A stretch of DNA of 57,755 bases from Elusimicrobia bacterium CG_4_9_14_3_um_filter_62_55 (GCA_002790095.1 PFUL01000072.1:1-57755); one strand, 5' to 3'; shown: positions 4,788 through 47,106, numbered from the stretch's first letter. Program-made: numbers and translations. Notes: generated by a model from the sequence alone, not told the origin.

Positions 4788-4840
4788 GAGGCTTTACCCG
4801 GCCGTTACCCTTTCGGAACAAACCGGAAAAGAATCCCGTC

Positions 4841-4846
4841 TAATCT
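4841..4846 (+). promoter_or_regulatory. -10 box, leaderless type
   Basis: TAATCT lies exactly 6 nt before the ATG at 4853, after a 65-nt gap from the PBP stop. The intervening gaggcc is too close to the start to act as a Shine-Dalgarno. Confidence 0.45.
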
Positions 4847-4852
4847 GAGGCC

Positions 4853-5638: not shown

Positions 5639-6255
5639 ACCCTCCCCCGCCGAAGGAACTCCTGGCGAATGCACTAAACCCCGCCTATCATCTCGCCCTG
5701 CGGCTTACCGGCAACGAATCGGACGCGTGGGATTTAACGCATGACGCCATGCAAAAGGCCCTTGCGGCGCTGCCTCGGTTTCGGGGGGAAAGCGCGCCGC
5801 GAACATGGGTCTATCGCATCGTCGTCAATCTATGGAAAGACCGGAGCGCGTCGGCCGGCGTTCGCTTCCGGTCCCGGATGCTTGCCATCGACGAAGAGTC
5901 CGTCGGGGGCTGCGAACCGCGTCCCGAGGATCTGCTGGAAAGAGCCGAAAACAGCCGAATGATCGAAACCGCGATGGATTCTCTCGAACCGGCCGACCGG
6001 CGAATTCTGATCATGCGCGAATTCGCCGGACTTTCCTATCGCGTCATCGGCAAGGCCGCCGGCGTCCCCATCGGAACCGTCAAATCCAGACTCTCGCGCG
6101 CGCGCCGCGCGCTGAGACGCGCGATCGAAGCCGCTCTGATCGTCTGCCTCCTGCTGGCCGCCGCCGCCCTCTTCTTGAACCGGCCCCGTCTCTCCGAAAC
6201 GCTCCGGCGCGTGGTCTCTCAATTGAACTTCCACGAACTTCTCGGACCCCGTTAG
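5635..6255 (+). CDS. ECF-type sigma factor with C-terminal membrane helix
   Basis: 206 aa. Region 2 (~20-75) shows the ECF pattern, including RTWVYRIVVNLWKDR. Region 4 (~108-160) has LEPADRRILIMREF and a helix-turn-helix ending GTVKSRLSRARRALRR, the usual sigma-4 DNA-binding element. Directly after sigma-4 comes a hydrophobic stretch (residues ~166-182, LIVCLLLAAAALFL) and a 24-residue basic tail. That would anchor the protein in the inner membrane with its DNA-binding domains inside. The start at 5635 overlaps the stop of the CPBP protease. Most ECF factors are soluble and held by a separate anti-sigma; none is visible here. Confidence 0.85.
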   Translation: MNPPPPKELLANALNPAYHLALRLTGNESDAWDLTHDAMQKALAALPRFRGESAPRTWVYRIVVNLWKDRSASAGVRFRSRMLAIDEESVGGCEPRPEDLLERAENSRMIETAMDSLEPADRRILIMREFAGLSYRVIGKAAGVPIGTVKSRLSRARRALRRAIEAALIVCLLLAAAALFLNRPRLSETLRRVVSQLNFHELLGPR

Positions 6256-6330
6256 GGGCTCGAACAGAAATCCTCCGTTCCCGTCTAACTGGCGAGGGAT
6301 TCGAAACGCTTCGACTCTCCGGAGGAAGCC

Positions 6331-6528
6331 ATGAAGGAAGCTCTCACGCATCTCGCGATTCGCGGTCTCGGCCGCCGCGGCCAAGGAATGGTCGAGTATC
6401 TGTTGATGATCTCGGTCGTCGTCGGAGTCATCTTGGTGATCGGAGCGCTGTTTAAACCCAAATTAGCGGGGGTTTTTCAGCAGATAATGAAAATGATCGA
6501 AGGCGCGATCCGGCAAGTGGGAGGATAG
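6331..6528 (+). CDS. Small pilin-like protein with class III (Flp-type) signal peptide
   Basis: 65 aa. After a basic leader (RGLGRRGQ) comes GMVEYLLMI and a single hydrophobic helix of about 22 residues. This matches the prepilin N-terminus of Flp/class III type, where cleavage falls before the hydrophobic segment and Glu at mature position ~5 (here the E of GMVEY) guides assembly. A strong Shine-Dalgarno (GGAGGAAG) lies 4 nt upstream of the ATG, so it is a leadered gene. It lies 75 nt downstream of the sigma factor gene and far from the pilB/T/C operon, so its secretion partner is not obvious. Confidence 0.8.
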   Translation: MKEALTHLAIRGLGRRGQGMVEYLLMISVVVGVILVIGALFKPKLAGVFQQIMKMIEGAIRQVGG

Positions 6529-6597
6529 GCCGCGGATCGATAAAATCAGTCGTTTTTAAAACGGAATTTCCGCAATACGCCGGAAAAATCCATTTGT

Positions 6598-6603
6598 TAG
6601 AAT
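6598..6603 (+). promoter_or_regulatory. Extended -10 box, leaderless type
   Basis: TGTTAGAAT (TGn plus TAGAAT) ends 6 nt before the ATG at 6610. The intervening sequence is GGGGGC. Confidence 0.5.
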
Positions 6604-6609
6604 GGGGGC

Positions 6610-7578
6610 ATGAAGCGGAAGGCGATTTGGATCGCCACTTTATTCGTTATGGTCGCCCTGTTCGCGCGCGCGCGCGCGAATGAGACCTCCCCATGGGGCG
6701 CCAAATCCGTCGGCGTGCTTGTGGTCGCGGAATACGGGGGTGGAGAATGGAACCGCTTCGTCTCCGACGCCCGCAAAGCGCTCGGGAAGGGGGTTCCGCT
6801 CGAAGCCTACGCGGGCGCGCTCGGCTCCAAGCCCCTCCAGAAGGCGGTCGACCGCCTCCAGGCGGAACGCATCGAACGCATCATCGTCGTTCCCGTCGTG
6901 CTGGACTCCGCCGTTCCCGAAGTCGAACAACTCCGCTACCTTTTCGGCGCCCGGGAGTTTCCTTCCGAAGCCTTTCTCGAGAAATGGCGGATGGGCAAGC
7001 GCCTCGTCGCGCGCGTGAAGACGAAGCTCCCCGTCGTCATCACTGCGGGGATCGACGGGCACGACTCGGTAGCGAACATTCTGCTCTCCCACGCGAAGAC
7101 GATGAGCCGGGACCCTGCGAAGGAAACGGTCCTGCTTTTGGGTGTCGGCGGCGACGGGGACGACGAACACGCGCGCCTGAGCGCCCGGATCGATTCTCTC
7201 GCACGGGGAGTGGCAGCCCAGGGCCGTTTCGCCGGCGCCGCCGGTTTTCTCGTGCGTTCCGCGACGGCGAAGCGCCCCCTCCGGCGGGAGCAGAGCATTC
7301 GCGCCCTGCGCCGCATGATCCGCGAAGCCAGCCAACGCAGCCGCGTCCTCATCGTCCCCTGCGTTCTCATCGACGACGGAAGCCTTCGCGGCTGGAAGAA
7401 GGAACTCGATAATCTCTTTTACCGCTGGAAGGGAACGACCCTTCTGCCCGACCCGGCCCTGATCGCATGGCTTAAAGAGCGCGTCGAGCAGGCGCGAACC
7501 GCCGACACGATGGTCGTCTTTAAGGACGGAGGCCACCTCTTGCCCTCCAAAAAACTCAAGTCCAAACTAAACCCATGA
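6610..7578 (+). CDS. Exported CbiX-like (chelatase-fold) protein, tandem domains
   Basis: 322 aa with a signal peptide (~1-24). Two similar halves follow. The first (~30-140) has VGVLVVAEYGG and ERIIVVPVVLDS; the second (~165-310) has TVLLLGVGGDGDDEHA, RVLIVPCVLIDDGS and a C-terminal LPDPALIAWLKERV. The pattern fits sirohydrochlorin chelatase (CbiX/SirB) folds, which insert Co or Fe into tetrapyrroles. The HGS motif that carries the metal-binding His is not conserved in either half (AEYGG and GVGGD instead), so normal chelatase activity is doubtful. A role in metal or porphyrin binding outside the cytoplasm is possible. It overlaps the next gene by 4 nt. Confidence 0.6.
   Translation: MKRKAIWIATLFVMVALFARARANETSPWGAKSVGVLVVAEYGGGEWNRFVSDARKALGKGVPLEAYAGALGSKPLQKAVDRLQAERIERIIVVPVVLDSAVPEVEQLRYLFGAREFPSEAFLEKWRMGKRLVARVKTKLPVVITAGIDGHDSVANILLSHAKTMSRDPAKETVLLLGVGGDGDDEHARLSARIDSLARGVAAQGRFAGAAGFLVRSATAKRPLRREQSIRALRRMIREASQRSRVLIVPCVLIDDGSLRGWKKELDNLFYRWKGTTLLPDPALIAWLKERVEQARTADTMVVFKDGGHLLPSKKLKSKLNP
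6663..6676 (+). repeat. (CG)7 dinucleotide repeat in signal peptide coding region
   Basis: Seven consecutive CG units lie 53 nt after the start codon of the CbiX-like gene and encode the ARAR part of the signal peptide. A change of one unit would shift the frame. Confidence 0.7.
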
Positions 7579-8699
7579 GCGCTCGAATTTCCATAAGCTT
7601 CCGCCTTCTGCTCTGCGCGACGATCGCCGGCGGGACCGCGCCGTTTGCCTTCGCCCAGGAATCGGACGAAGTCACGCGCGGCCCTCTCCGGGTACACATC
7701 GAAACCGAAGGAACCGTCCGGGCCGAGGAAATTTTCCGCATTCATTCGACGATCGAGGGACGCATCGAAACCCTTACCGCGAAGGAGCTCCGTTGGGCCG
7801 CCGCACAGGACGAACTCGGAACCATGCTGACGGCGGAACTTGCCGCGATTATGGACGCGCGCGCATCGACTCCTTCACAAACCCTCGAGGATCGTTGGAA
7901 GCGCATCTACAAACCCACGCCGCTGCGCTGTCCCCAGGAATGCTTCATCCTCAAGATTTACGCGCGCGAGGGGAAAGTCGTAGCGCCGAACACGCTTCTC
8001 ATCGAAGCCGCTCACAAACTGCGCCTTGTCGGCCGCGTGCGGCCCGGGGACGCGAAATGGATTCGGGAAGGACAGCTTGTGGACTACTGGCCCAAGAACG
8101 ACCCGAAGAACCGCAATCAGGGGCGGGTTGAAAAATTCATCCTCGACGTTCAAGGGGAAACGGTCGAGCCGGGCGGAACCTTCACGATTCTCCTCGATTC
8201 CAAACACTACCTCGATCCGGAAACGGAATGGGTCGGAGAAATCACGATCCTCGCGAAGAAGGACGTTCTGCGGGTGCCGACCGAAGCGCTGCTTCACTTC
8301 GACGGGGAAGTGTTTCTCCCCATTCGAGTTTCGACCGGCGTCACCTCATACGGCACGACGGAAATTACGGCCGGCGTGTCGGAGCGTCAGCATTTCCTGC
8401 ACCTCGCGCCCGGAGAGGCTCAAGCGGTCCCCCGCCACACCCCGGATCGGCAGCCGCCCTCCGAATTGGGTCCGGCTCCGGAACCCGAACCGGCGCCGCC
8501 GGCGCGTCGGCGCCAACGGACGAAGACGGAATCTCGGACCAATCGCCCGCCGCCGCCGCGACGCGCGCGTCCGCGCCGGCGCGAAGAAGCCGAGCCGGTT
8601 AAGATTCAACGCATCAAGCGCATCCCGGGAGAAATCGACGTTTTTCCGGAAGACCAGGAGGCCGAGGACGATGAGCGATTCCCCAGCGACAAAGAGTGA
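7575..8699 (+). CDS. HlyD/MFP-like periplasmic adaptor-type protein
   Basis: 374 aa with a signal peptide (hydrophobic core FRLLLCATIAGG, cut near AFA). The RGPLRVHIETEGTVRAEE start, the REGKVVAPNTLLIEAA lipoyl-like hairpin, the LVGRVRPGDAKWIREGQ barrel and RVPTEALLHFDGEVFLPI resemble membrane-fusion proteins of RND or ABC export systems. The long coiled coil of pump adaptors is replaced by ~60 residues containing a lone CPQEC pair. Residues ~285-335 are Pro/Arg-rich and probably disordered. No pump gene is adjacent. Its ATG overlaps the stop of the CbiX-like gene, and its end overlaps the next gene by 29 nt, so the three form one unit. Confidence 0.6.
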   Translation: MSARISISFRLLLCATIAGGTAPFAFAQESDEVTRGPLRVHIETEGTVRAEEIFRIHSTIEGRIETLTAKELRWAAAQDELGTMLTAELAAIMDARASTPSQTLEDRWKRIYKPTPLRCPQECFILKIYAREGKVVAPNTLLIEAAHKLRLVGRVRPGDAKWIREGQLVDYWPKNDPKNRNQGRVEKFILDVQGETVEPGGTFTILLDSKHYLDPETEWVGEITILAKKDVLRVPTEALLHFDGEVFLPIRVSTGVTSYGTTEITAGVSERQHFLHLAPGEAQAVPRHTPDRQPPSELGPAPEPEPAPPARRRQRTKTESRTNRPPPPRRARPRRREEAEPVKIQRIKRIPGEIDVFPEDQEAEDDERFPSDKE

Positions 8700-9342
8700 A
8701 ACACCCGGCCGATCCGGAGGACCGGGTGGCGCTCCGCGAGTCTTCATGGACTTCTGGTTCCTGAAGCTCGACCCTCGGTTTTCTCTCCTGATGAGCAACG
8801 AAAAGGTCGTCGCCCGACAGGAGTTTCTGGCGACCCTGGACCAATTCCCGCACCGGCTTCCCGTCGTCGTCTACGCGCTCGACGGTCTCAGCGCCGACGC
8901 CGACATTTTGATCTGGCGGCTCAGTCCCGATCTGGAGGATTTTCACACGATGTCGACGCGCCTGCGGCGCTCAGGATTCGGACGCTACCTGCTTCCGACG
9001 CGATCGTTCACAGGAACCGTACCCGCCTCGGAATATCCGTTCGAACCGCAGCGTAAAGGGGCGAAGGAATCCGGCCCCATCGGGAACAAGCGGTTTCTCC
9101 TCGTCGCCCCCGTCACGGCGGCCGATGCGGAAGCCCTTCGCGCCGGCGCGCCCGCGGAGGAAGGCCGACTGCATGTCCTCGACGGACGGGGGCTCGATGA
9201 AACCCCGTGGCTCGCGGCCTACGAGACCGACGACCCGACCGCGTTCGCTCGCCTGCTCACGCGCTTCGCCCCGGATGCGAAGGCCCCCACGACGGTTTGC
9301 GTCCGCAAAGACGCTCCCGACTTGATCGAGAGCGCGGGATAG
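8671..9342 (+). CDS. Chlorite dismutase/HemQ-superfamily-like protein
   Basis: 223 aa. After a short Ser/Gly-rich tail the body has MDFWFLKLDPRF, LSADADILIWRLSPDLEDFH, a YPFEP motif and the C-terminal ETPWLAAYETDDPTAFARLL, which follow the order of conserved blocks in chlorite dismutase-family (Cld/HemQ) proteins. The segment that normally holds the proximal haem His is shortened (about residues 150-165) and I see no clear equivalent. Haem binding is therefore uncertain. The start is the ATG at 8671, which overlaps the adaptor gene. Linkage to a CbiX-like protein hints at tetrapyrrole or metal handling. Confidence 0.55.
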   Translation: MSDSPATKSETPGRSGGPGGAPRVFMDFWFLKLDPRFSLLMSNEKVVARQEFLATLDQFPHRLPVVVYALDGLSADADILIWRLSPDLEDFHTMSTRLRRSGFGRYLLPTRSFTGTVPASEYPFEPQRKGAKESGPIGNKRFLLVAPVTAADAEALRAGAPAEEGRLHVLDGRGLDETPWLAAYETDDPTAFARLLTRFAPDAKAPTTVCVRKDAPDLIESAG

Positions 9343-9362
9343 CGCGAAGCGGCGTCCGAACG

Positions 9363-11744
9363 TTGAAAAACAAGTTTTACAACCTCCACCTTCACTGCGC
9401 ACTCGGCCCCCGCGTCGATCCGTGGCTCGGCGCCCCTGAAGCCGATCTCTCGATCGCCGGATACCGGGACGCGTACGAACGGGCGTATCATTCCTGCTAC
9501 GGTCCCAACACCAGCGCCGCGCTTCGCGATCCCTACGATGAGGGGCGCGTGATCGATCTCGTCAATAATTTCGAGAGCGTAGGCTTCGACGCCTCCTTGG
9601 AACTGCTCTCCTGGCTCGAAACGCGGCACCCGCGCGTCTACCGGAGACTACAAGCCGCCGACGCCGCTCAATGCCGAGAGTTCGGACACGGCGGCGCGCT
9701 CGCCGTCCCGTACCCCCCGCTGCTTCTGCCGCTGGCGCCGAGACGCGACAAGCGCACGGTCGTCCGGTGGGGGCTGGAGGATTTCCGCCGCCGTTTCGGC
9801 CGGGACGCCGAAGGGATGTGGCTCCCGGAAAACGCGATCGACGACGAAACGTGCGAAATCCTGATCGAAGCGGGAATCCGCTTCACCGTCGCGGCGCGGA
9901 CCCAGGCCGCCAGCGTGCGTCCCGTCGGAGCGGACGACGACGCGTGGATCGAGACGACGCCCGAAACTTTGGATCCCCGGAGGCCCTACCGCTGGTCCTC
10001 GAAGGAGCAGCCCGGCCGGAGGCTCGCCGTCTTCGCCTACCGGACCGACCTTTCCCCGCGGGCGATGCTGACCCGGACAGCCCTCGCAAGCGACGACGCG
10101 CTCGCCGTCGACGCCTGTCAGAGTTTCGCGAACCGCCTGATCGACTCGCTGACCGCCAACGACGCCGCGGAACTCGCGCATCTCGCGATCGACGGGGAGT
10201 GGTTCGGGCTGATCCACCCGTACGGTGAGCGCGCCCTCGCGTTTACCCTCGATCTTTTGGAGCGGGAAGCGCCCGCGCTGCGCGCGAACTACGCCGCGTT
10301 CCTCGAACTCTTTCCTCCTCCCCAGGAAATCGAACTCAAGCCGGCGAGCGCGCGCAGTTGTCCGCACGGACTGGAACGCTGGCGGGGGGATTGCTCGTGC
10401 GCCGGCGAAGGCGCCGGGAACTGGCGCGCGCCCCTTCGCTTTGCGCTCGAACGCCTCGGACGCGACGCGTCCGAAGCGGCCTTCGCGCTCGTACGGCCGC
10501 TTTGCGCCGATCCTGAGGACGCCCTGAACGCAGCCGGACCCGTCCTCTTTTCCTCCCCCGCAAACCGCGTTGAGGATTTTCTGGCCGACGCGGCGACGCG
10601 CCACCCGACTCCGGAACAGGCTCGTCGACTGCTTCGCGCTGCGGAAGTCCGGCGAGCCGCCCTCGCGCCGCTCGCGCATTGGACCTGGCAGGGAGACGGC
10701 CCGTTGTCCGCGGACGCGGTCGAAGCCCTCGCCGCCTGCTCCCGCGCGGTCTTCGTCCTTTCGCTGGAAAGCCCCGAACGCGCCGTCGCGGTGGAAAGCG
10801 CGCTTCTTGACGAACTTGCGCGCGTGCCGGATCCGTCCGCCGCCGCCTCCGGAATCGCCGACGCCTACCGCCGCATCGCCGGCTTGCGGTCCGTGGGGGT
10901 TCGCCGGGCCGCCGCGCACGAAGCGCTGTTTCTCGCCCTGCGCGAACGCGTCGCCTGCCTTCCGGTCCTGGAAGCTCCGTTTCTGGAATTCTCTTTTTCG
11001 CTGCTGTCCCGGCGGGATCGTCCGGAGCGCGGAGGCCAGGCCCGCCTATTCGTTTTTTCCGCGGCCGTCCGGGACCGGCGCACCTTCGATCGCTTTCAGG
11101 GAGTCGCCGTCGTTTTGGACGCCGGGGCTGCGGCCGTCGATTGCTGGACGGAACCCTCGGACGATCCCGAACGGGATTCCTCGGAGTTGGAGCGGCTCTT
11201 CGTCGACTCGGGCGCGGAAGCCCTGCGCTCGGCTTGCGCCCAACGCTTCGATTCGCGTGCCTGGGGAATCGACGGGATGCTGGGGGAAACGCGCCGCGCG
11301 GTCGCACGGGAGCTTTCCGCGAGGCGCAGCGGGGATGCCGACGCGGATCAGCTGCGCGCGCGCTGGCAAGCGCTGATCGCGACTCTCGAAACATCCGCCG
11401 GAGATCCCGAAGCGGTCGCGTCTTTGCTCGCCGATTCGGTCCCCATCGCCAACGACCCCGACGCCGCGCGGGGGATGGAACGTATCCGCCGCCAACTGTC
11501 CGGGAGCGCCGCCCGATTCGCCGAAGCGCCTTCTCCGGAAACGGCCGCTCCGGTGCGCCGTCTTTTAACGGCCGCGCGCGACAGCGCGCTTCCCCTCAAC
11601 GTTTGGGAACTGAGAGATCTCGCGCGCGCCGGCCTGGCCCGCGCAGGAAATGCTCTTGGGGAAGACGATCGGCGGGAACTGCTTTCCATGCTGGGACTCG
11701 CCGAGACCGCCCTTAAGGAGGAACGATGGTCACCCGCAAGTTAA
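9363..11744 (+). CDS. Glycoside hydrolase family 57/DUF3536-like protein
   Basis: 793 aa from a TTG start. The N-terminus has NLHLHCALGPRVDPWLG, resembling the GH57 N-terminal FH(L/Q) segment. Residues ~140-180 carry RRFGRDAEGMWLPENAIDDE and the ILIEAGIRFTVAARTQA block typical of GH57/DUF3536 proteins. The C-terminal half is helical and Ala/Arg-rich. Family members act on alpha-glucans or are uncharacterised. The start is uncertain: TTG at 9363 is the first start codon just before the conserved region, and no Shine-Dalgarno is visible. The 3' end overlaps phoH by 19 nt. Confidence 0.72.
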   Translation: MKNKFYNLHLHCALGPRVDPWLGAPEADLSIAGYRDAYERAYHSCYGPNTSAALRDPYDEGRVIDLVNNFESVGFDASLELLSWLETRHPRVYRRLQAADAAQCREFGHGGALAVPYPPLLLPLAPRRDKRTVVRWGLEDFRRRFGRDAEGMWLPENAIDDETCEILIEAGIRFTVAARTQAASVRPVGADDDAWIETTPETLDPRRPYRWSSKEQPGRRLAVFAYRTDLSPRAMLTRTALASDDALAVDACQSFANRLIDSLTANDAAELAHLAIDGEWFGLIHPYGERALAFTLDLLEREAPALRANYAAFLELFPPPQEIELKPASARSCPHGLERWRGDCSCAGEGAGNWRAPLRFALERLGRDASEAAFALVRPLCADPEDALNAAGPVLFSSPANRVEDFLADAATRHPTPEQARRLLRAAEVRRAALAPLAHWTWQGDGPLSADAVEALAACSRAVFVLSLESPERAVAVESALLDELARVPDPSAAASGIADAYRRIAGLRSVGVRRAAAHEALFLALRERVACLPVLEAPFLEFSFSLLSRRDRPERGGQARLFVFSAAVRDRRTFDRFQGVAVVLDAGAAAVDCWTEPSDDPERDSSELERLFVDSGAEALRSACAQRFDSRAWGIDGMLGETRRAVARELSARRSGDADADQLRARWQALIATLETSAGDPEAVASLLADSVPIANDPDAARGMERIRRQLSGSAARFAEAPSPETAAPVRRLLTAARDSALPLNVWELRDLARAGLARAGNALGEDDRRELLSMLGLAETALKEERWSPAS

Positions 11745-37143: not shown

Positions 37144-37737
37144 TCAGAGAATCGTGATGGTTCCCGTCTCAACGCGCAACGAGGCCTTCGGGCTCTCGCA
37201 GCGCTTTCCGGAAGCGCCCTCAATGACCCCGATCTTCACCCATGCGTCGACGCACGAATCCCCGGCCGAACCACCGTCGTCGTAGGTGACGATACCGGTC
37301 TCGATGTAGGCGTCCGTGCGCCCGCTGCGGGGGCGGATCGTCAGAACGCCGGTTTCGACGTTCAGCGTGAGCGCGGACCCCGTCGGAACGGTCACCGTCC
37401 CCCGGGCGGTCAAACGCTCACCCGCGAACACGGCGAGAACGCCGTCGCCCGAATTGAAGGAGACGCTGCTCTTCTTGATCTCCTCCTCGCTCGGTTTGCG
37501 GGCAAACCATCCGTCTTGATTCGCCTTGAATCCCACGGCGAACGAAACCGCAGACTCCGATCCGGCCTCGATCGTCAGTTCTCCGCGGTTAACCGCGATC
37601 TTGATCTCCCGCCCCGCATCAACCGCGATCGAATTCGACTGCGATTTGAGTGCGGCCGCGCGGCCCGTTTGAACCGATCCCATCATCATTGCAACCGCGA
37701 AAACCCCCGCGATCCATTGTTTGTTCTGCATCTTCAT
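37144..37737 (-). CDS. Secreted DUF4097-like beta-strand repeat protein
   Basis: 197 aa with a signal peptide (AGVFAVAMMMGS, cut near GRA). The mature part is a run of short alternating strands (KIAVNRGELTIEAG, TVTVPTGSALTLNVETGVLTI, AYIETGIVTYDDGG, SLRVETGTITIL), the repeated V-E-T-G-x-(L/I)-T-I pattern of DUF4097/toastrack-type beta-helices. Two Cys (CVDAW, CESPK) may form a disulphide. A strong Shine-Dalgarno (GGAGGAAG) fixes the ATG at 37737. It is the last gene of the candidate RiPP operon; a role in immunity or binding is possible but unproven. Confidence 0.75.
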   Translation of the reverse strand: MKMQNKQWIAGVFAVAMMMGSVQTGRAAALKSQSNSIAVDAGREIKIAVNRGELTIEAGSESAVSFAVGFKANQDGWFARKPSEEEIKKSSVSFNSGDGVLAVFAGERLTARGTVTVPTGSALTLNVETGVLTIRPRSGRTDAYIETGIVTYDDGGSAGDSCVDAWVKIGVIEGASGKRCESPKASLRVETGTITIL

Positions 37738-37751
37738 TCTTCCTCCGAATA

Positions 37752-38504
37752 TTATTCCTGGCGCCACGCGAGGTGGCTCCGAATCAAAATCAACGACAAC
37801 GCCGCAAACGCGGCGAGTACGCAAAGATCGAAGGCAAGCGCGGGCCTGTCCAACGCCGGCGCCAACAGCGCCCGAAGGGCACGGGCCGCGTAAGTCGTCG
37901 GGAGCAAGGTCCCGAACCAGCGCAGCCCCTGGGGCAGCGCGTCGGCCGGAATCATCACCGGCGTAAAGAAAACCACGACAGTGTACCCGATCTGGGTCAG
38001 GAAATTGGCGGCGCGTGAACTCGGCGCGAGAAATCCGACGGCCGCACCGGCGGACGCAAGCGAGAAGGCCGCCAGCAGCAGAACGGGAACCGCGAGGAGC
38101 GTCACGCTCCCGAGTCGAAGTCCGAGCGTGAGTGAACCCACGATAAAAACGGTCACGACCGATGGAAGCGCGAAGGTGATCGCGCGGGCCAGAATCGCGA
38201 AGACCAGCGCGCTCCGCGGCACCGGCAAGGTGGCGTAGAAGTCCAGGCTGCCGCTCGCCTTCATGGCGGAAAGCTCCTGGCCGAGACTCAGAGTCGTGTT
38301 CAGAACCACCGCGAAGATCACGCTGCCGGTCACCGCGTGTGCGACCCGTTCCGGAGACCCCGCCGCACCGGTAAAGCTCAGGAACCAAAGCAGGGAGAGC
38401 GGCGAGAGCGCGGAGAGCCCGACCGCCCACATCCACCCCTCCCTCCAGGAGCGCAGTTCCATCCCGTAGAGCAGAAGCCAGCTCGACAGCGATCGACGCA
38501 TCAC
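37752..38504 (-). CDS. ABC-2 type transporter permease
   Basis: 250 aa, six predicted TM helices. The hydrophobic layout and the TLSLGQELSAMKASGSLDFYATLPVPRSAL region (in parts) resemble ABC-2 permeases of drug, lantibiotic or NatB type. It overlaps the preceding ATPase gene by 4 nt, so the two make one exporter. The start is GTG 38504 or ATG 38501. In the context of a peptide-maturase operon it most likely exports the modified peptide or protects the cell from it, since no peptidase domain is present in either subunit. Confidence 0.85.
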   Translation of the reverse strand: MMRRSLSSWLLLYGMELRSWREGWMWAVGLSALSPLSLLWFLSFTGAAGSPERVAHAVTGSVIFAVVLNTTLSLGQELSAMKASGSLDFYATLPVPRSALVFAILARAITFALPSVVTVFIVGSLTLGLRLGSVTLLAVPVLLLAAFSLASAGAAVGFLAPSSRAANFLTQIGYTVVVFFTPVMIPADALPQGLRWFGTLLPTTYAARALRALLAPALDRPALAFDLCVLAAFAALSLILIRSHLAWRQE

Positions 38505-39436
38505 GGAGCCTCCAGGGCCGCGCGCTCAAAGTAAACGTCCTCGAGCGTGGGAGTGCGCACCGACCAATGGATCCGTCCCTCCGTGCGGGCGGCGCGCATC
38601 ACGCCGACCAGACGGGCGATCGAGTCCGGGTCGACGGCGATGCGCATGCGCTTCCGATCAGCGCTGGTTCCGACCGACCGACCCGCCTCCCGTTCGATTT
38701 CCTCGGGGATCGGGTGGTCGCTCCAGAGGTCCACCGTCACGCGCTCCAGGCGGGAGCGCAGCGCGGCGGCGGGTTCGCACGCAACGAGACGTCCGGCGGA
38801 AAGCCAAACAACCCGGTCAAGCAGCGACTCCGCTTCGAGCAGATTGTGCGTGTTCACTATTACCGTCGTTCCGGCCTCCCGCAGCCTCCGCAGTTGTTCC
38901 CAAACGCAGCGGCGGCTCTCCGGGTCGAGGTCGTTGGTCGGTTCATCCAATACTAGAACCGAACGCCCCCCGATCAGCACGCACGCCAACGCCGCCAGGC
39001 GGCGCTGGCCGCCTGAAAGCGCCTTCAGCGGTGCGTCGGCCTTCCCACTGAGCCGCAGCCGCTCGATCCAATCGACCGCCTCGAGCTCGGCCGCCCTGCG
39101 GTCCAATCCGCGCAGGCGGCCGAGCGAGACGACGGCCTCCCGAACCGTCAGCCCCGTAAGCGCCCTGCCGAACCCCTGTTGGGGCAGGTAGGCGACAAAG
39201 CGGGAGACGGCTTCAGGGTGTTCCGTCACGTCTATCCCGAACAGACTCATCCGCCCGCCGTCGGGCCTCAGGAGTCCCAGCATCGAACGCACCAGCGTCG
39301 TCTTCCCGGCGCCATTGGGACCGATGATCCCGACAGCCTCCCCGGACGGAACCTCGAACGAAATGCCGTCGTTCGCCGGGCGATCGGCGCCCTTGTAGGT
39401 TTTCCTGACTTCGCTCAGTGCGTATGCGGTTTTCAT
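38501..39436 (-). CDS. ABC transporter ATP-binding protein
   Basis: 311 aa. Walker A is IGPNGAGKTTLVRSMLG (~40), Q-loop YLPQQGFG, signature LKALSGGQRRLAALACVL (canonical LSGGQ) and Walker B VLVLDEPTNDLD, with a switch His in VNTHNLLEAE. The last ~90 residues form the extra domain common in NatA/CcmA-type exporters. It starts 19 nt after the precursor peptide gene and overlaps the permease gene. It is the energiser of the exporter in the candidate RiPP operon. Confidence 0.95.
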   Translation of the reverse strand: MKTAYALSEVRKTYKGADRPANDGISFEVPSGEAVGIIGPNGAGKTTLVRSMLGLLRPDGGRMSLFGIDVTEHPEAVSRFVAYLPQQGFGRALTGLTVREAVVSLGRLRGLDRRAAELEAVDWIERLRLSGKADAPLKALSGGQRRLAALACVLIGGRSVLVLDEPTNDLDPESRRCVWEQLRRLREAGTTVIVNTHNLLEAESLLDRVVWLSAGRLVACEPAAALRSRLERVTVDLWSDHPIPEEIEREAGRSVGTSADRKRMRIAVDPDSIARLVGVMRAARTEGRIHWSVRTPTLEDVYFERAALEAP

Positions 39437-39455
39437 CGTCGTTATCGCGTCCCGC

Positions 39456-39536
39456 TTAGATGCACACGTAGTTCGTGTCGCACTTCACATTCGTGTCCGT
39501 CGCCTGCTCTTCGTTCTCGGCTTCAGCCCATTCCAT
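39456..39536 (-). CDS. Candidate RiPP precursor peptide (26 aa)
   Basis: A 26-residue open frame between the SPASM maturase and the ABC ATPase. The N-terminal half is strongly acidic (MEWAEAENEEQ, leader-like) and the C-terminus is KCDTNYVCI, with two Cys five residues apart (C19, C25). It has a good Shine-Dalgarno (AGGAGAAGG) 3-4 nt upstream, starts 14 nt after the maturase stop and ends 19 nt before the ATPase gene. The codon-level evidence plus position make it a likely substrate for thioether, C-C or similar crosslinking. I know no named family with this core. Confidence 0.72.
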   Translation of the reverse strand: MEWAEAENEEQATDTNVKCDTNYVCI

Positions 39537-39550
39537 GTTCCTTCTCCTTT

Positions 39551-40969
39551 TTAGTCGGCGATCCCGAGTCCGGATGCGTTCGCGGGCTCGAGCCTTCCGA
39601 ATTTTTCAAAGTGTTCCCAGACGGTGATCAGCGACCGGCGCAGCTGCTTTTTCGGCGTCGGACAAGGACGCCGTCCGCTCTCGATGCGAACGAGGGGACA
39701 GGAGGCCCCTTGGCAGGCCGGCCGGAAAACGCAGGACTGGCAGACGGCGTCTTTTGAATCGTCTGAAGTTACCCACAGCGCGAACTTGTCGTCATCGATC
39801 ACCATCGTCCCGTCCGCGTGCAGCCGCCCGATCTTGTTGAAATCCTTGTCCAGCGCGACCGTGCACTTGTACAGCGTCCCATCCGCGCCGACCACGAAGG
39901 AATTCGGATTCGCCGCGTAGCAAATCGACCCGCCGGGACGCAGGAAGGGATAGGTCCCGGCGCTCTGCAGGCCCATCGCCTGCGCCTTGCGTGTGGACTC
40001 GTACTCGGCCGAATTTGCCGCGACCCCCGTGCAGATCTCGACGTTCTCGTCGTTGTCCCCGCCCCAATGGCCGACCGGACGGAAGAATACGCTGAACCGG
40101 TCGTCTCCGGCGAACTCATCGACCAATCTCCGCAGGAACGGCTCCAGGTCTGCGAGCGTTTTGGGATCGAAATTTACGCGTATCGCCATGTGAAACCGGT
40201 ACGGCGCCTTTTTCGCGGCCCGCAGGTTCTCCCAAATGCGGGCGAACGTCGCGCCACCGTCCTTGCGCACGCGCTTTGCGTCGTGCTGGTCCGGCAGCCC
40301 ATCGACGGTCACCTGAATGCGAGAGACGCCGCAGTCGACGAGCGTGCGCAGATTGCGCCGGTCCAAATGGTAACCGTTGGTCACGATGTTCGCCGAATAT
40401 GGAATGCCCTTCGCCCGGGTCGCGGCGATCATGTACTGGGAGAGTTCTTCGATGATGCCGATCTCCTCCAGCGGCTCCCCGCCGAACCAGTTCACGTCCA
40501 AGCGGTCCAGGGAAGCGAGACTCTTCGCGACGAGGTTCTTCACGCCCTTTCGGGTATTGCGGTCCATCGCGCCCCGGGCGAAATCCTCGTAGCAGTAGTT
40601 GCAGCGGAAATTGCATTCCTCGGTCGGCATCAATATAAGGTGCAGGCCCCGCGCCGACTGTCGGCGCTGCTTGAGCAACTGCGCCCGCAGGTCTTCATCG
40701 GCGTACTCGGGCACGAGAAAACCACGGTCGGCGAGTTGTTTCGCCTGACCCATGAGCGTTCCCTTAAATCCATCGCGCAGCAGCGGCAGGATCTCGCCTT
40801 CACGGTCCTTCGGCACTGCGCCGATCGCCCCGGTCATGCTGTTGTAGACGAGCCAGCGTTTGCTCTCATCCTGAACCCGAACGGTGTAGCGGGAGGGCTT
40901 CCAGGCCAGCACCGTGCCGGTGGAGGGCATCGGACTCGGGCGTGGTTTCGTTTCGATTCCTGTGGGCAT
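39551..40969 (-). CDS. Radical SAM/SPASM peptide maturase
   Basis: 472 aa from ATG 40969. An N-terminal RiPP-recognition-like region (~15-100: SRYTVRVQDESKRWLVYNS, then GFLVPEYADE) precedes the radical SAM core with CNFRCNYCYE (CxxxCxxC cluster), WFGGEPLE and NIVTNGYHLD. The C-terminal SPASM domain has CYAANPNSFVVGADGTLYKC and CQSCVFRPACQGASCP, enough Cys for auxiliary Fe-S clusters. This is the architecture of enzymes that crosslink ribosomal peptides (sactipeptide, ranthipeptide, PqqE-like). It is followed directly by a 26-aa Cys peptide gene. A later start at 40930 is possible. Confidence 0.93.
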   Translation of the reverse strand: MPTGIETKPRPSPMPSTGTVLAWKPSRYTVRVQDESKRWLVYNSMTGAIGAVPKDREGEILPLLRDGFKGTLMGQAKQLADRGFLVPEYADEDLRAQLLKQRRQSARGLHLILMPTEECNFRCNYCYEDFARGAMDRNTRKGVKNLVAKSLASLDRLDVNWFGGEPLEEIGIIEELSQYMIAATRAKGIPYSANIVTNGYHLDRRNLRTLVDCGVSRIQVTVDGLPDQHDAKRVRKDGGATFARIWENLRAAKKAPYRFHMAIRVNFDPKTLADLEPFLRRLVDEFAGDDRFSVFFRPVGHWGGDNDENVEICTGVAANSAEYESTRKAQAMGLQSAGTYPFLRPGGSICYAANPNSFVVGADGTLYKCTVALDKDFNKIGRLHADGTMVIDDDKFALWVTSDDSKDAVCQSCVFRPACQGASCPLVRIESGRRPCPTPKKQLRRSLITVWEHFEKFGRLEPANASGLGIAD

Positions 40970-40984
40970 ACAACACAACAGGAT

Positions 40985-41100
40985 CAATTCTTATGCCAGT
41001 TATTAATCAGCTTCAATTGATTTTAAGCTATTATTATTTTCATATGAAATTTATTATAGCCTCTTATGAGAATAGTTTTTCAAAATGCATGATTTTGCGA
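40985..41100. promoter_or_regulatory. AT-rich divergent promoter region
   Basis: About 115 nt of roughly 30% GC in a high-GC genome, between the maturase and the gene at 41144. On the minus strand it holds TATAAT (41053-41058) with a TTGAAA 19 nt upstream, and nearer the maturase TTGAAG-17-TAAGAA. TATTAT is available for the plus strand. It probably drives both operons. Confidence 0.55.
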
Positions 41101-41853: not shown

Positions 41854-43206
41854 ATGAAGAAACTCTCAATCCTCCTCGTGGAAGACGACCCTCTCGCCCG
41901 AAAGGTGTTGGAGACCGAACTCAAAGGCCACGCGCTCCAAAGCGCCGCGGACGCCGCCGCCGGACTCGCGAAAATCAATACCGGCAAGTTCGATCTCGTC
42001 TTCCTCGATTTGGATCTGGGAGCAAAGGACCCTCTTGCGGGCCTGCGCCTGATAGCCCCGGCCGCCTCGGCCGGTGCCTACACCGTGATCATGTCCGGTC
42101 ACGACGAAGAAGAGATCGTCTCCCGGGCCTACGAACTCGGCTGCCACGACTTCTACTCTAAGGGAAGCGAGACCGAAAGCGTCGCACAAGTCCTCACCCG
42201 CTTCGACCGCCACCGCGCCTTGCCCGAGGACGAACAGGTCTTCACGAATCGCTTCGTCACGCAAGACCCCGCGACCCAAACCGCGATCGCCGAGGCGTTG
42301 AAATTCGCCGCTTCCGATCTCCCGATCCTGATCCTCGGCCCCTCCGGGACCGGAAAGACGATGCTCGCGCGGGTTCTGCACGAACGCTCCGGTCGAAAAG
42401 GCCCGTTCGTCGCGGTCAACTGCGCCGCCTACCAAGAGGACTTGCTCGAAGCGGAGCTGTTCGGCTACCGCAAGGGCGCCTTCACCGGCGCCGACGACAG
42501 CCGCCGCGGCCGCCTGCTCGAAGCCGACGGCGGAACCCTGTTTCTAGACGAGATCGGCTCGATGAGCCTGGCGATGCAGACCAAGCTCTTGAAGGCCATC
42601 GAGGAAAAGATCTTCTACCCGCTGGGCTCGGACAAACCTGAAGGTTCTTCCTTTAGGGTCGTCAGCGCGACGCTCGAGGATTTGCCGGAACTCGTGCGCG
42701 CGGGCAAGCTGCGCTTTGATTTCTTTCAGCGCATCCACGGGCTGACGGTGACGCTTCGGGCGCTGCGCGAGCGCCCGGACGATGCGCTGCCGCTGATCGC
42801 GCATTTCATGCGCGCCGGCGGGCGGCGCGTGATCTTCGCCGACGACGCGAAGGCGCGCCTTCGCGCGCACGGCTGGCCGGGCAATGTCCGGGAACTCAAG
42901 CGCCTGGTCGAACTGCTCGCGGCCGGGGCGGAAGGGATGGTCACCGCCGCGACGCTCGGCCGCTACCTTGGCGAGGCGCGGGCGAAGGCGCCGGCCGCCG
43001 AAGAGGACCCGGCGCTGACGGAGTCCCAGTACCGCAAAGCGGTCTCGCAGGGGCTCTCCGCGGCGGTGGACGGGCTGGTCGACGCGGCGATTGCGCGCTG
43101 CCTGGCCGAAAACGGCGGCAAGAAGACAAAGGCGCTGAAAACACTTAAGATCTCGACGCGGATGCTCTATGCGTCGCTGGAACGAACCGGGAAGAAATCA
43201 CCATGA
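41854..43206 (+). CDS. NtrC-type sigma-54 response regulator
   Basis: 450 aa. The receiver domain (1-125) has the acidic pair EDD, the phosphoacceptor in LVFLDLDL (Asp ~52-54) and the conserved Lys in DFYSKGSE. The AAA+ domain (~140-360) has Walker A GPSGTGKTMLA, the sigma-54 contact loop as GAFTGA (ELFGYRKGAFTGA) and LFLDEIGSM. The C-terminal region ends in a Fis-like helix-turn-helix (KTKALKTLKISTRMLYASLE). It should activate sigma-54 promoters when phosphorylated. No full histidine kinase is adjacent; a 57-aa dimerisation-like protein overlaps its end by 4 nt. Confidence 0.93.
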   Translation: MKKLSILLVEDDPLARKVLETELKGHALQSAADAAAGLAKINTGKFDLVFLDLDLGAKDPLAGLRLIAPAASAGAYTVIMSGHDEEEIVSRAYELGCHDFYSKGSETESVAQVLTRFDRHRALPEDEQVFTNRFVTQDPATQTAIAEALKFAASDLPILILGPSGTGKTMLARVLHERSGRKGPFVAVNCAAYQEDLLEAELFGYRKGAFTGADDSRRGRLLEADGGTLFLDEIGSMSLAMQTKLLKAIEEKIFYPLGSDKPEGSSFRVVSATLEDLPELVRAGKLRFDFFQRIHGLTVTLRALRERPDDALPLIAHFMRAGGRRVIFADDAKARLRAHGWPGNVRELKRLVELLAAGAEGMVTAATLGRYLGEARAKAPAAEEDPALTESQYRKAVSQGLSAAVDGLVDAAIARCLAENGGKKTKALKTLKISTRMLYASLERTGKKSP

Positions 43207-43376
43207 ACGACGCGGCGCTCTCGAAGCTCATCCACGACGTGAATTCCAAATGCGCGAGCCTCAAAAGCGCGGCGGCGCTGCTGCGCGGGGCGGACGAAAA
43301 GGAACGCGCGGAGTTTTTGAAGCTGATGAAGGAACAGGCGCGGTCGCTGCTCGAGGCGCTTGACGGATGCGCGTAA
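43203..43376 (+). CDS. 57-aa histidine-kinase dimerisation (DHp)-like mini-protein
   Basis: ATG overlaps the regulator's stop (ATGA). The protein is two amphipathic helices. The first contains KLIHDVNSKCASLKSAAALL, which resembles the H-box of HisKA domains (HDxxN around a phosphorylatable His); the second is EFLKLMKEQARSLLEAL. There is no ATP-binding domain. It may be a free phosphotransfer or dimerisation partner for the regulator, or the surviving front of a broken kinase. A detached kinase ATPase tail lies at 46178-46336 on the other strand. Confidence 0.6.
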   Translation: MNDAALSKLIHDVNSKCASLKSAAALLRGADEKERAEFLKLMKEQARSLLEALDGCA

Positions 43377-43516
43377 AATCCGGCGACGTCCGTCTGCGGA
43401 ACTTCCGCCCCGAGGACCTGGATCCGCTCTGCGACTACTTCTACCGGTCGCCGCGGGTCTATCGCGCTGACGCGAGCGCGATCGAACGCGCGGCGCGGCG
43501 GGTGGGGGTCCGGTGA
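43367..43516 (+). pseudogene. Fragment resembling GNAT acetyltransferase N-terminus
   Basis: A 49-codon frame with VRLRNFRPEDLDPLCDYFY, the typical first strand-helix of GNAT enzymes. The catalytic and acetyl-CoA binding parts are missing. It overlaps the preceding mini-gene by 10 nt and its stop overlaps the next start (GTGA). It is probably a remnant, although the perfect coupling means expression as a small protein cannot be excluded. Confidence 0.45.
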
Positions 43517-43629
43517 AGCGGCGAGCGCCTTTTTTCGACCACTGCTACACCGAGGATCGAAATCACCGCTTCATCCTGGACTTGCAGAAGCGCGGCTTCA
43601 ACGCCCAGACTGTCATTGGAACCGGATGA
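43513..43629 (+). pseudogene. Fragment of a paralogue of the VOC-like gene at 46333
   Basis: A 38-codon frame from GTG with FFDHCYTEDRNHRF. The gene at 46333-47106 starts with LRFDHAYTSDREHRF; 10 of 13 residues from FDH to HRF are identical. Only the first ~35 residues survive. Start and stop are both 4-nt overlapped with neighbours. Confidence 0.5.
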
Positions 43630-45032
43630 AAGATTGGGGGAAGGTCAACAGCACCATTCGCATCCACGTACCGTTTACTTTTTCCGGGAATCTTGATCCT
43701 CTCCGTGTTCTAACTGTCGGAGATCAGGTGGCGAGCGAACACGCGTTCGCGGCGCACTCGCGCGCATCTATTCGCGACGGATTCACGCGCGTTTTTTCGG
43801 ACGTTACGATCGACCGAGAAACCGGGGAAATCAAAATCATCCCCCGGTTTCCCCTACGGAACTCGGACGGCAGCGACATCTCAGCAGATGAGATCTGTTC
43901 GGCAGCGAAGGAAGTCCTCAGTGGAACGCGGCACGCCCCGTATACGAGCATCCTAGAAGGCGTCGATTGCATCGACGGCAAGGGCATAAGGATTCGGATG
44001 ACGTCGATCCCTTCCAACATCCAAAATCTCCTAACAATCCCCGATCTTTTTATTTTCGATCGCAGCAAACTGCCGATTTCCGAAGCCGCTCTTCAACCGA
44101 CGACGGGGCCGTACGAACCTGTTCTAATGAGTCGAGATCGAATTGACTTCAAGCTCAATCCGAACTACCCCGCATCCTTACGAGCAAACACAGTTCCTCG
44201 TGTAAGCCTCGAACGTTACGATGCGCACCGGACGTCAGAACTCATAGAAAAGACCGATGCAAAAACCCACGATGCGATCTATCTTTACGGCCACGCTGTA
44301 ACCCTCGACGATCTCGACCGACTAGGACAAAAAAACTACTCCTGTGAGCAGTACCCGGGAGAGTGGCTCGTTTACGTCGGCTTCGGACCTCAGGTGAAAT
44401 TGGGAGATCGACGACGCATCGGTGAAGTTCTGGACGCGCAGCGATCGAACTACATTAACGCTGCCCCCCTCGCCAAGGCCGCCTATTCGATTCCGCCTTC
44501 GGATGGTCCGTTCGGTCTCTCCCAAGAGGAATACGCGGCACTCAAACTTAACGCCAAAAACCCCTCCCGCGAATTGACTCGCGGGCTCAAACTCCGGACT
44601 TTAGACTCATGGGCGAATCTCCCGATTTTTCGAGAAGTGATCGAAGGCCTAAGAAGCGAACTCTCCATCGAGATCGAACTTGTTTCGTCGACGGAGATCG
44701 AACGTCTCTTTTCCGAAGAAACCGGGATTCTACTCAGTCCCCTGGGGATTTCCCAAGCCGATCCGCTTAGCCATCTTTCCTTCCTTTCAACAACAAATCC
44801 CGAGTTCGCAAAAACAGTTCCTCAGGACCGCATCGCTAAGGTTGCCATCCTGGATGACGAAAGCCGATTTACGGCGGAAATTAAGAAAATCGAGACCGAC
44901 ATCCTCGAGGCCGGCCACATCATACCTCTCGCCCATTTCCCCGGAATCGTCGCGATCGCCCCCGGCATCGTTCGAGACGAATCGATCTCATACAACTGGG
45001 GGATACAAGCTTGGGCGCTTCGGCTAGACTAA
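43626..45032 (+). CDS. Solute-binding protein family 5-like, no signal peptide
   Basis: 468 aa. The blocks FPLRNSDGSDISADEICSAAKE (the DGxxhTAxDV-type region) and TTGPYEPVLMSRDRIDFKLNPNY (GTGPY...NPxY) are typical of oligopeptide/dipeptide-binding proteins (SBP_bac_5). There is neither a signal peptide nor a lipobox; the N-terminus begins directly with beta strands (STIRIHVPFTFSG). It may be cytoplasmic, like the SgrR-type sensor domains, or wrongly truncated. GC content is visibly lower than the neighbours, suggesting transfer. The start overlaps the preceding fragment (ATGA). Confidence 0.65.
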   Translation: MKDWGKVNSTIRIHVPFTFSGNLDPLRVLTVGDQVASEHAFAAHSRASIRDGFTRVFSDVTIDRETGEIKIIPRFPLRNSDGSDISADEICSAAKEVLSGTRHAPYTSILEGVDCIDGKGIRIRMTSIPSNIQNLLTIPDLFIFDRSKLPISEAALQPTTGPYEPVLMSRDRIDFKLNPNYPASLRANTVPRVSLERYDAHRTSELIEKTDAKTHDAIYLYGHAVTLDDLDRLGQKNYSCEQYPGEWLVYVGFGPQVKLGDRRRIGEVLDAQRSNYINAAPLAKAAYSIPPSDGPFGLSQEEYAALKLNAKNPSRELTRGLKLRTLDSWANLPIFREVIEGLRSELSIEIELVSSTEIERLFSEETGILLSPLGISQADPLSHLSFLSTTNPEFAKTVPQDRIAKVAILDDESRFTAEIKKIETDILEAGHIIPLAHFPGIVAIAPGIVRDESISYNWGIQAWALRLD

Positions 45033-46177: not shown

Positions 46178-46336
46178 CTATTCACCGCCGGACAGACGCA
46201 GCTCAACCGTCGTCCCCTTTCCCAACTCTGATTTGATACGCATCAGGCCGCCCCATAATTCGACCGATTCCTTGGCGTGTGTCAATCCGAGCCCCGAACC
46301 CCCGGCTTTTCCGACCGTGAAGCCGCGATCACTCAC
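46178..46336 (-). pseudogene. Detached C-terminal tail of a histidine kinase ATPase domain
   Basis: A 52-codon frame from GTG whose start overlaps the stop of the VOC-like gene (GTGA). It contains GFTVGKAGGSGLGLTHAKES, the G-box of HATPase_c domains, followed by VELWGGLMRIKSELGKGTTV, the usual end of such kinases. The DHp, N-box and F-box parts are missing, so it cannot act alone as a kinase. The front-like piece at 43203 is on the opposite strand. Confidence 0.7.
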
Positions 46337-47106
46337 CGCCCGGACTCCCTTCCGATCACGAGAATATCCCAAAACCGCGAGGGATTCCGGACCACCGCCG
46401 CCTTCCTCCCGAAAAACCGAGTCCACCCGTCCGGATGCGCCCATCGCTCAAACTCCTTCAAATCCGCTGCCTCGAGAATCGCGTTCCGGAACCGCGTCCT
46501 CGCGGCCGGATTGAGATAAAGACGCGTCCCGCATTCGAGCCGCGTCGACCTCCCGATCCTGCGCCCGAGCACCTCTTCGAAGAATCGCCGGCCGGCGGGA
46601 GCGACGTCGAACTCGAAGCCGTGAATCCCAGTGACGGTGTTGGCATGCTTAAGAAACTTTGCCGCGATCGGCGTCCTCCTGCCTTTGACCCCTGGACCGC
46701 GTTCAAACTCGGTCAACCACACGTTTGCGGCAGGGAACGCAGTGCCGTACTCAACGAAATTCCAGCCCGGCAGCCCCTTCTTGTTACCCTTTGTCTTCCA
46801 CTCATAGTTCCGATGCCAATAACGCGCTTTCAAGAAACGGTTCTCGCGGACGCTCTCAAAATATCGCCGTAATGGCCCGGAGGCCGCCAATGAAAATCCC
46901 GGGATTACCTTCTCGCGAAGACCATGATGGATGAATTCAAGACAAAACGGGTTCGCCTTAGACGCGCCCGGTAAGAAAATGAATCGGTTCTCATGCGGCC
47001 CCGGATGGTGAGTTACATGAGGATGTAGCATGAATCCAGCAGAGATCAATCGCCGAAAGAAGCGATGCTCCCGGTCCGACGTATACGCGTGATCGAATCG
47101 CAGCAT
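46333..47106 (-). CDS. VOC/glyoxalase-like protein
   Basis: 257 aa, soluble. It starts LRFDHAYTSDREHRFFRRLISAGF, a strand-helix with a possible metal His typical of VOC (glyoxalase-like) folds, with a second related half from ~150 (TGIHGFEFDVAPAGRRFFEEVLG). The middle has many aromatic and His residues. Function and substrate are unknown. It begins 7 nt after the cystathionine-family gene in the same direction, and a fragment of a paralogue lies at 43513. Codon use is a little less GC-rich than its neighbours. Confidence 0.6.
   Translation of the reverse strand: MLRFDHAYTSDREHRFFRRLISAGFMLHPHVTHHPGPHENRFIFLPGASKANPFCLEFIHHGLREKVIPGFSLAASGPLRRYFESVRENRFLKARYWHRNYEWKTKGNKKGLPGWNFVEYGTAFPAANVWLTEFERGPGVKGRRTPIAAKFLKHANTVTGIHGFEFDVAPAGRRFFEEVLGRRIGRSTRLECGTRLYLNPAARTRFRNAILEAADLKEFERWAHPDGWTRFFGRKAAVVRNPSRFWDILVIGRESGR

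What the first reader, a model, noticed from the sequence alone, without database searches (positions are those of the whole stretch)
37144..40969. Compact candidate RiPP system: SPASM maturase, 26-aa Cys peptide, ABC exporter, secreted beta-repeat protein
Seen: five same-strand genes with gaps of 14, 19, -4 and 14 nt. The maturase has CxxxCxxC and a Cys-rich SPASM domain; the next frame is a tiny acidic peptide ending in a Cys pair; then ABC ATPase and ABC-2 permease; then a secreted DUF4097-like protein. Known: radical SAM/SPASM enzymes next to short Cys peptides and exporters make crosslinked ribosomal peptides. Inference: this is a RiPP pathway with no dedicated protease and with an unusual secreted fifth component, in a lineage where such products are little described.
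Basis: partly seen in the sequence, partly recalled or inferred. Interest (0 to 1): 0.85.

Follow-up and report, generated by a model that had tools for sequence, protein, structure and literature searches.

The report
Asn-Cys crosslinked peptide operon with toastrack
A bacterium from an unnamed phylum carries a five-gene operon that very probably makes, crosslinks and exports a 26-residue peptide; relatives share its Asn-x-x-Cys-x-x-Asn-x-x-Cys core, which predicts the chemistry, while the secreted beta-repeat partner and the sigma-54-type control have not been described for such peptides in the papers I could search.

Summary
The RiPP reading holds and can be sharpened. Only 3 of 341 genomes of the phylum have a close maturase (55-60%), and the same three have the permease. 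All three have short peptides with M-x-W...E at the N-terminus and an N-x2-C-x2-N-x2-C core (four peptides). More distant maturases of one well-supported clade, on rhizobial, Acetobacter and Streptomyces plasmids and in one more genome of the phylum, also have Cys peptides with Asn at -3 of the first Cys (10 of 10; Deinococcus members do not). Asn-x2-Cys is the site at which streptococcal NxxcB forms a Cys-S to Asn-C-beta thioether, so two such bridges (-4 Da) are predicted. The secreted fifth gene recurs: a clear toastrack DUF4097 protein in the third cluster, and DUF4097 genes beside related maturases in Bradyrhizobium and Paraclostridium. A sigma-54-type promoter precedes the maturase, and a sigma-54 response regulator (55% identical) is divergently encoded in the two best-preserved loci. 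Inferred, not shown: the bridges, export, toastrack function and peptide activity. No characterised NxxC enzyme could be compared.

The parts
39551..40969 (-). radical SAM/SPASM peptide maturase, 472 aa from ATG 40969 (TTG 40987 and Met14 at 40930 are alternatives)
   Evidence: Pfam Radical_SAM 3.4e-17; NCBIfam TIGR04463 8.9e-62, below its cut-off; 60% and 55% identical to G008 and G078 proteins
39456..39536 (-). 26-aa precursor peptide MEWAEAENEEQATDTNVKCDTNYVCI; short leader M-x-W..AEA, core N-x2-C-x2-N-x2-C
   Evidence: aligned with L011 and two L037 peptides, invariant M, W, E, N, C, N, C; rare pattern
39462..39491 (-). codons of the core NVKCDTNYVC, the predicted crosslink sites (two Asn-x2-Cys units)
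   Evidence: precedent NxxcA Cys23-Asn20 (PMC8326336)
38501..39436 (-). ABC ATPase (DrrA/NodI-like), exporter subunit
   Evidence: ABC_tran 2.7e-28; 42% identical to the L011 gene
37752..38504 (-). ABC-2 permease, exporter subunit
   Evidence: ABC2_membrane 4.7e-15; profile found only in G000, G008 and G078 of 341 genomes
37144..37737 (-). secreted beta-repeat protein, 197 aa, positional counterpart of a toastrack (DUF4097) protein
   Evidence: signal-like N-terminus; GxZxZ repeats 6 against 1.07 in shuffles; L037 counterpart DUF4097 1.5e-18; own Pfam match absent
40982..40998 (-). sigma-54-type promoter element TGGCATAAGAATTGATC upstream of the maturase
   Evidence: 16 of 17 bases shared with L011; the same kind of element upstream of most RiPP operons of the phylum
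41854..43206 (+). sigma-54-dependent response regulator (REC-AAA+), divergent from the operon, probable activator
   Evidence: Sigma54_activat 9.2e-57, Response_reg 1.5e-13; 55-61% identical regulators beside RiPP loci in L011, L018 and L019
41144..41851 (+). hypothetical protein with an N-terminal membrane segment, between promoter and regulator; not present in L011
   Evidence: role unknown
43626..45032 (+). frame that by eye resembles a family-5 solute-binding protein; possible sensory partner
   Evidence: no Pfam match; such genes lie near RiPP operons in L014, L039 and L040

Best explanation
The operon is a RiPP pathway. The SPASM radical SAM enzyme recognises a short leader (M-x-W-x-A-E) on a 26-residue peptide and forms thioether bridges between each Cys and the Asn three residues before it (Asn16-Cys19 and Asn22-Cys25), most likely to the Asn beta-carbon as NxxcB does, removing 2 H per bridge. 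The DrrAB-like ABC-2 transporter exports the product. The secreted toastrack-like protein acts on the outer side of the membrane as a binding, sensing or self-protection partner. Transcription starts at a sigma-54 promoter activated by the divergent response regulator. Shown by sequence: gene anatomy, conservation of the peptide and its core, co-occurrence of maturase and exporter, the promoter element and the linked regulator. Inferred: the bridges and their carbon, leader recognition, export, the role of the toastrack protein, and the activation.
For: Four peptides in three clusters share M-x-W, E, N, C, N, C. Asn at -3 of the first Cys in 10 of 10 peptides of the maturase clade, 8 of them found by gene position or annotation rather than by the pattern; the clade is supported at 100/99. 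Direct precedent: NxxcB links Cys to the beta-carbon of the Asn three residues upstream (PMC8326336; PMC13361665). Best profile matches are peptide maturases. Maturase and permease occur in the same 3 of 341 genomes. DUF4097 in the third cluster and as RefSeq-named neighbours in Bradyrhizobium and Paraclostridium. Near-identical sigma-54-type element with the divergent regulator in two families.
Against: No characterised NxxC enzyme could be compared by sequence. Only some later Cys residues have Asn at -3 in the distant peptides. Deinococcus members of the same clade (37-38% identical) lack an NxxC peptide. The window's repeat protein has no significant Pfam match, a profile comparison gave only 28% probability, and both structure predictions failed. 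The promoter has GA where the sigma-54 consensus has GC at -12. No protease is encoded, so leader removal is unexplained.
Confidence: 0.66

Rival explanations
1. Same pathway, but the bridges are alpha-carbon thioethers (sactipeptide) or run Cys to the Asn three residues after it.
For: The Asn at +3 of the first Cys is also conserved (7 of 10), and SPASM maturases make both alpha and beta bridges (PMC8326336).
Against: The last Cys in the window and L011 peptides has no Asn after it, whereas every core Cys in these two has one at -3. The best-scoring profiles with known chemistry include PapB, a non-alpha thioether enzyme.
Confidence: 0.17
2. A claim about the product's role that is compatible with the best explanation: the mature peptide is an antimicrobial and the toastrack protein is its immunity factor.
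For: The L037 toastrack protein also matches LiaG and the daptomycin-sensing LiaX; toastrack proteins act in envelope-stress systems (PMC11237479); DrrAB-type exporters often export antibiotics (general knowledge).
Against: Sigma-54 response-regulator control and nearby SBP/kinase genes suit signalling equally well; nothing here measures activity.
Confidence: 0.35
3. A second claim about the product's role, also compatible with the best explanation: the mature peptide is a signal, sensed through an SBP-like protein, a kinase and the sigma-54 regulator.
For: Family-5 SBP genes near related RiPP operons and kinases in several of them; SCIFF ranthipeptides are cited as quorum-sensing molecules (reference in PMC8326336).
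Against: No kinase was recognised beside the window's regulator, and its SBP-like frame has no Pfam match.
Confidence: 0.3
4. The short frame is incidental and the maturase acts on another substrate, for example the secreted protein.
For: A 26-codon frame can occur by chance; in G023 the likely substrate is a 332-aa protein with a Cys-rich tail.
Against: Conserved frame, start context, M-x-W leader and N-x2-C core in three clusters.
Confidence: 0.04

Closest known systems
NxxC RaS-RiPP subfamily of streptococci (NxxcA/NxxcB)
   Same: Asn-x2-Cys core modified by a SPASM radical SAM enzyme; the Cys23-Asn20 bridge is the proposed model (PMC8326336, PMC13361665)
   Different: Here the motif is doubled (N-x2-C-x2-N-x2-C), the precursor is very short with an M-x-W..E start, the exporter is ABC-2 type with a toastrack-like protein, and control is sigma-54 type rather than Rgg/SHP; enzyme sequences not compared
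TIGR04463 / Clo7bot / PapB-type SPASM peptide maturases
   Same: Full-length similarity, best profile matches; Paraclostridium Clo7bot clusters also carry a DUF4097 gene
   Different: Scores far below the curated cut-offs; PapB uses Cys-x3-Asp and does not accept the reversed order (PMC9413430)
Toastrack (DUF4097/LiaG) envelope-stress proteins
   Same: L037 counterpart matches DUF4097 and LiaG; GxZxZ repeats in the window copy
   Different: Appears secreted rather than attached to PspC/LiaF membrane domains, and sits in a RiPP operon, an association not mentioned in the toastrack review
Bradyrhizobium peptide-rSAM-DUF4097 triad
   Same: 60-aa peptide ending NNGGCQCN, maturase of the same clade, DUF4097 gene directly after
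   Different: Long unrelated leader, shorter maturase (307 aa), no ABC exporter adjacent

Membership tests
RiPP pathway | conserved short precursor gene beside a peptide-modifying enzyme | tested here: met
RiPP pathway | modification of the precursor by that enzyme | not testable with these tools
   needs co-expression and mass spectrometry
NxxC beta-thioether RiPPs | Asn three residues before the crosslinked Cys in the core | tested here: met
   10 of 10 first Cys in the clade; both Cys in the window and L011 peptides
NxxC beta-thioether RiPPs | maturase homologous to NxxcB | not tested
   no NxxcB sequence was at hand in the collections used
NxxC beta-thioether RiPPs | Cys-S to Asn-beta-carbon bond | not testable with these tools
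   chemical structure needed
TIGR04463 maturases (NCBIfam) | score above the curated cut-off of 525 bits | tested here: not met
   209.2 bits
PapB ranthipeptide maturases (NCBIfam) | score above the curated cut-off of 340 bits; Cys-x3-Asp motif in substrate | tested here: not met
   103.1 bits; substrate motif is Asn-x2-Cys
anaerobic sulfatase maturases | score above the curated cut-off of 349.45 bits | tested here: not met
   63.9 bits
Toastrack DUF4097 | Pfam PF13349 match of the secreted protein | tested here: inconclusive
   none for the window copy; 1.5e-18 for the L037 counterpart; hhalign 28%
sigma-54 regulon | -24/-12 element upstream and a linked sigma-54 activator | tested here: met
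   TGGCATAAGAATTGAT, though -12 reads GA not GC; activator 41854-43206; promoter activity itself not tested

The most novel reading that the evidence does not exclude
A phylum-wide regulatory module (sigma-54 response regulator, short sigma-54 factor, kinase, family-5 binding protein) drives several unrelated RiPP classes, and in this branch the product is a doubly Asn-Cys-bridged mini-peptide that a secreted toastrack protein captures outside the cell, as a signal or surface ligand.
Probability: 0.22. Interest if true: 0.82.

Novelty: new variant of a known kind. Interest (0 to 1): 0.66.

Why it matters
It predicts a specific bond chemistry for an uncharacterised maturase clade that reaches from this phylum to rhizobial and Streptomyces plasmids, from a substrate signature that can be tested with one mass spectrum. 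It also proposes toastrack (DUF4097) proteins as recurring partners of radical SAM peptides, and sigma-54 control of RiPP operons in a little-studied phylum; either would give a search handle for more such clusters.

Tried and rejected
The single genome-contig scan gave one distant locus only. AlphaFold of the secreted protein failed with and without an alignment (pLDDT 36 and 32), so no fold search was run. Profile comparison of the secreted proteins was weak. Deinococcus plasmids have maturases at 37-38% identity but no NxxC peptide. The NxxC rule does not hold in the sister clade with Clo7bot-like peptides (by inspection), so it is not a general feature of these maturases. G023's maturase lacks part of the SPASM Cys set and its likely substrate is a large protein, so it was not counted as the same kind of cluster. 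Literature searches found no paper joining DUF4097 with RiPPs; subscription papers are mostly missing from that library.

Full report
What is there. Five minus-strand genes lie at 37144-40969 exactly as described: radical SAM/SPASM maturase, 26-aa peptide, ABC ATPase, ABC-2 permease and a secreted repeat protein. The gaps 14, 19, -4 and 14 nt are right. Pfam confirms Radical_SAM, ABC_tran and ABC2_membrane. The maturase scores best against peptide maturases (TIGR04463 209 bits, then Clo7bot, FlmE/OhkG, geopeptide, CefB and PapB), all below their curated cut-offs; sulfatase maturases score 64 bits.

Relatives in the phylum. Of 341 genomes, three have a maturase at 55% identity or more: the window's own, G008 (60%) and G078 (55%). 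A profile of the permease, built from these three, finds the same three genomes and no other at 1e-15. In G008 (L011) the order is response regulator (divergent), maturase, secreted protein, peptide, ATPase, permease; identities to the window are 60% maturase, 42% ATPase, 37% permease and 55% regulator. In G078 the maturase gene runs off the end of contig C62 (L012). Contig C167 (L037) begins with the end of a frame, followed by a secreted protein, two short peptides, ATPase and permease. That these two contigs are the two halves of one cluster is an inference from gene order and identity, not an assembled join.

The peptides. The four peptides are MEWAEAENEEQATDTNVKCDTNYVCI, MVWIAEAQTNLESMLTNGVCTGNGKCGQ, MTWLHEGSPIEPVSGLNWACPCNSSCNPK and MIWVAEGFKDPAGWDANANCPCNTNCRPCA. 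M1, W3, one Glu, and N-x2-C-x2-N-x2-C are invariant. Among 3332 distinct small frames in the loci then held, five have the core near the end: these four and an unannotated 60-aa frame directly upstream of a 34%-identical maturase on a Sinorhizobium meliloti plasmid. A 332-aa protein after the 36%-identical maturase of G023 has NRYCVPNSTC in its Cys-rich tail.

The maturase clade. A maximum-likelihood tree of 27 maturases puts the window with G008 and G078 (100/100) inside an 11-row clade (100/99) with Deinococcus, Bradyrhizobium, S. meliloti, Acetobacter, Streptomyces and G023. Long branches occur, for example Bradyrhizobium. In the ten Cys peptides of this clade the residue three before the first Cys is Asn in all ten; the next best positions are Asn at +3 (7) and Cys at +6 (6). 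For G023 only the Cys-rich tail was scored. The S. meliloti and G023 peptides were picked out by the pattern, so only eight are independent of it. The chance figure of 3.5e-12 counts all ten and is too strong for that reason; related peptides are not independent draws either. The Deinococcus members have no such peptide.

Chemistry. In NxxcA of Streptococcus orisratti the radical SAM enzyme NxxcB links Cys23 to the beta-carbon of Asn20 (PMC8326336; PMC13361665), the same Asn-x2-Cys spacing and order. PapB, which uses Cys-x3-Asp, did not crosslink the transposed order (PMC9413430), so order matters for at least one such enzyme. I therefore predict two Asn-Cys beta-thioethers in the window peptide, a loss of 4 Da. 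No NxxcB sequence was at hand, so membership by descent is untested; the claim is that it works like NxxC.

The secreted protein. The L037 counterpart is DUF4097 (toastrack) at 1.5e-18 and also matches LiaG and LiaX. The window copy has no Pfam match but has six GxZxZ repeats against 1.07 expected from shuffles, as do the others in varying number; L014 does not. The repeat pattern was chosen after looking at the sequences. Profile comparison (28%) and structure prediction (pLDDT 36 and 32) did not settle it. RefSeq names a DUF4097 protein directly after the maturase in Bradyrhizobium and within the Clo7bot clusters of Paraclostridium. By position and appearance such a gene is also present in L014, L018, L019 and L040; L018 has only a sub-threshold DUF4097 match. 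The toastrack review does not mention radical SAM or SPASM.

Regulation. TGGCATAAGAATTGATC lies at 40982-40998 upstream of the maturase; L011 has TGGCATAAAAATTGATC at the matching place and L012 has TGGAAAGACAATTGCT. The element fits sigma-54 -24/-12 spacing, with GA in place of GC in two of the three. With up to two mismatches the window's genome has six such sites against one for the reversed pattern. Similar elements precede RiPP operons in L014, L016, L018, L019, L039 and L040, and none was found for L015 and L041. The divergent gene 41854-43206 is a sigma-54-dependent response regulator; its homologues (55-65% identical to one another) lie beside RiPP loci in L011, L018 and L019. Similar regulators also flank a graspetide-like cluster (GRASP_targ above cut-off), so the regulator family is not specific to this peptide.

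Limits. Thioether formation, export, leader processing, toastrack function and biological activity are inferred. The phylum is unnamed in the tools. Antimicrobial and signalling roles are both open.

Noticed in passing
L072 (G000:C141) 297-1646 and 4366-5019: An 89%-identical paralogue of the window's response regulator, with a kinase nearby and a sigma-54-type element before a secreted 217-aa protein ending CENLPECRTVETCAQWDYCW; possibly a second Cys-peptide-like product.
   Followed up: partly
L074 (G050:C182): A graspetide-like cluster (GRASP_targ precursor above cut-off, MvdC-like ATP-grasp fragment) with a ryptide-like radical SAM enzyme beside a homologous regulator and sigma-54 factor gene.
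   Followed up: partly
L040 (G234:C86) 4429-10572: Three MFTWYQ...CCLSG.CCK peptides, ABC exporter and repeat protein, then an SBP and a YcaO-like gene (YcaO match just below its Pfam cut-off).
   Followed up: partly
L014, L016, L018 and L011 sigma-54 genes; 13 genomes: Sigma-54 proteins of this phylum have mostly short open frames (about 340-450 aa); the four scanned against Pfam match only the DNA-binding domain among sigma-54 domains. Several copies occur in many genomes.
   Followed up: partly
L047 1544-1726 (Sinorhizobium meliloti plasmid): Unannotated 60-aa frame ending NILCGCNVPCL directly upstream of a radical SAM gene; it shares a leader pattern (D..G.....) with the Bradyrhizobium and Streptomyces peptides.
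   Followed up: partly
L013 3097-5166 (G023:C14): Maturase lacking part of the SPASM Cys set, followed by a 332-aa protein with a signal-like start, a membrane segment and a Cys-rich tail containing NRYCVPNSTC.
   Followed up: partly
window 43367-43629 and 46333-47106: Short broken frames after the regulator resemble the start of the intact gene at 46333-47106, which suggests a decayed copy.
   Followed up: no
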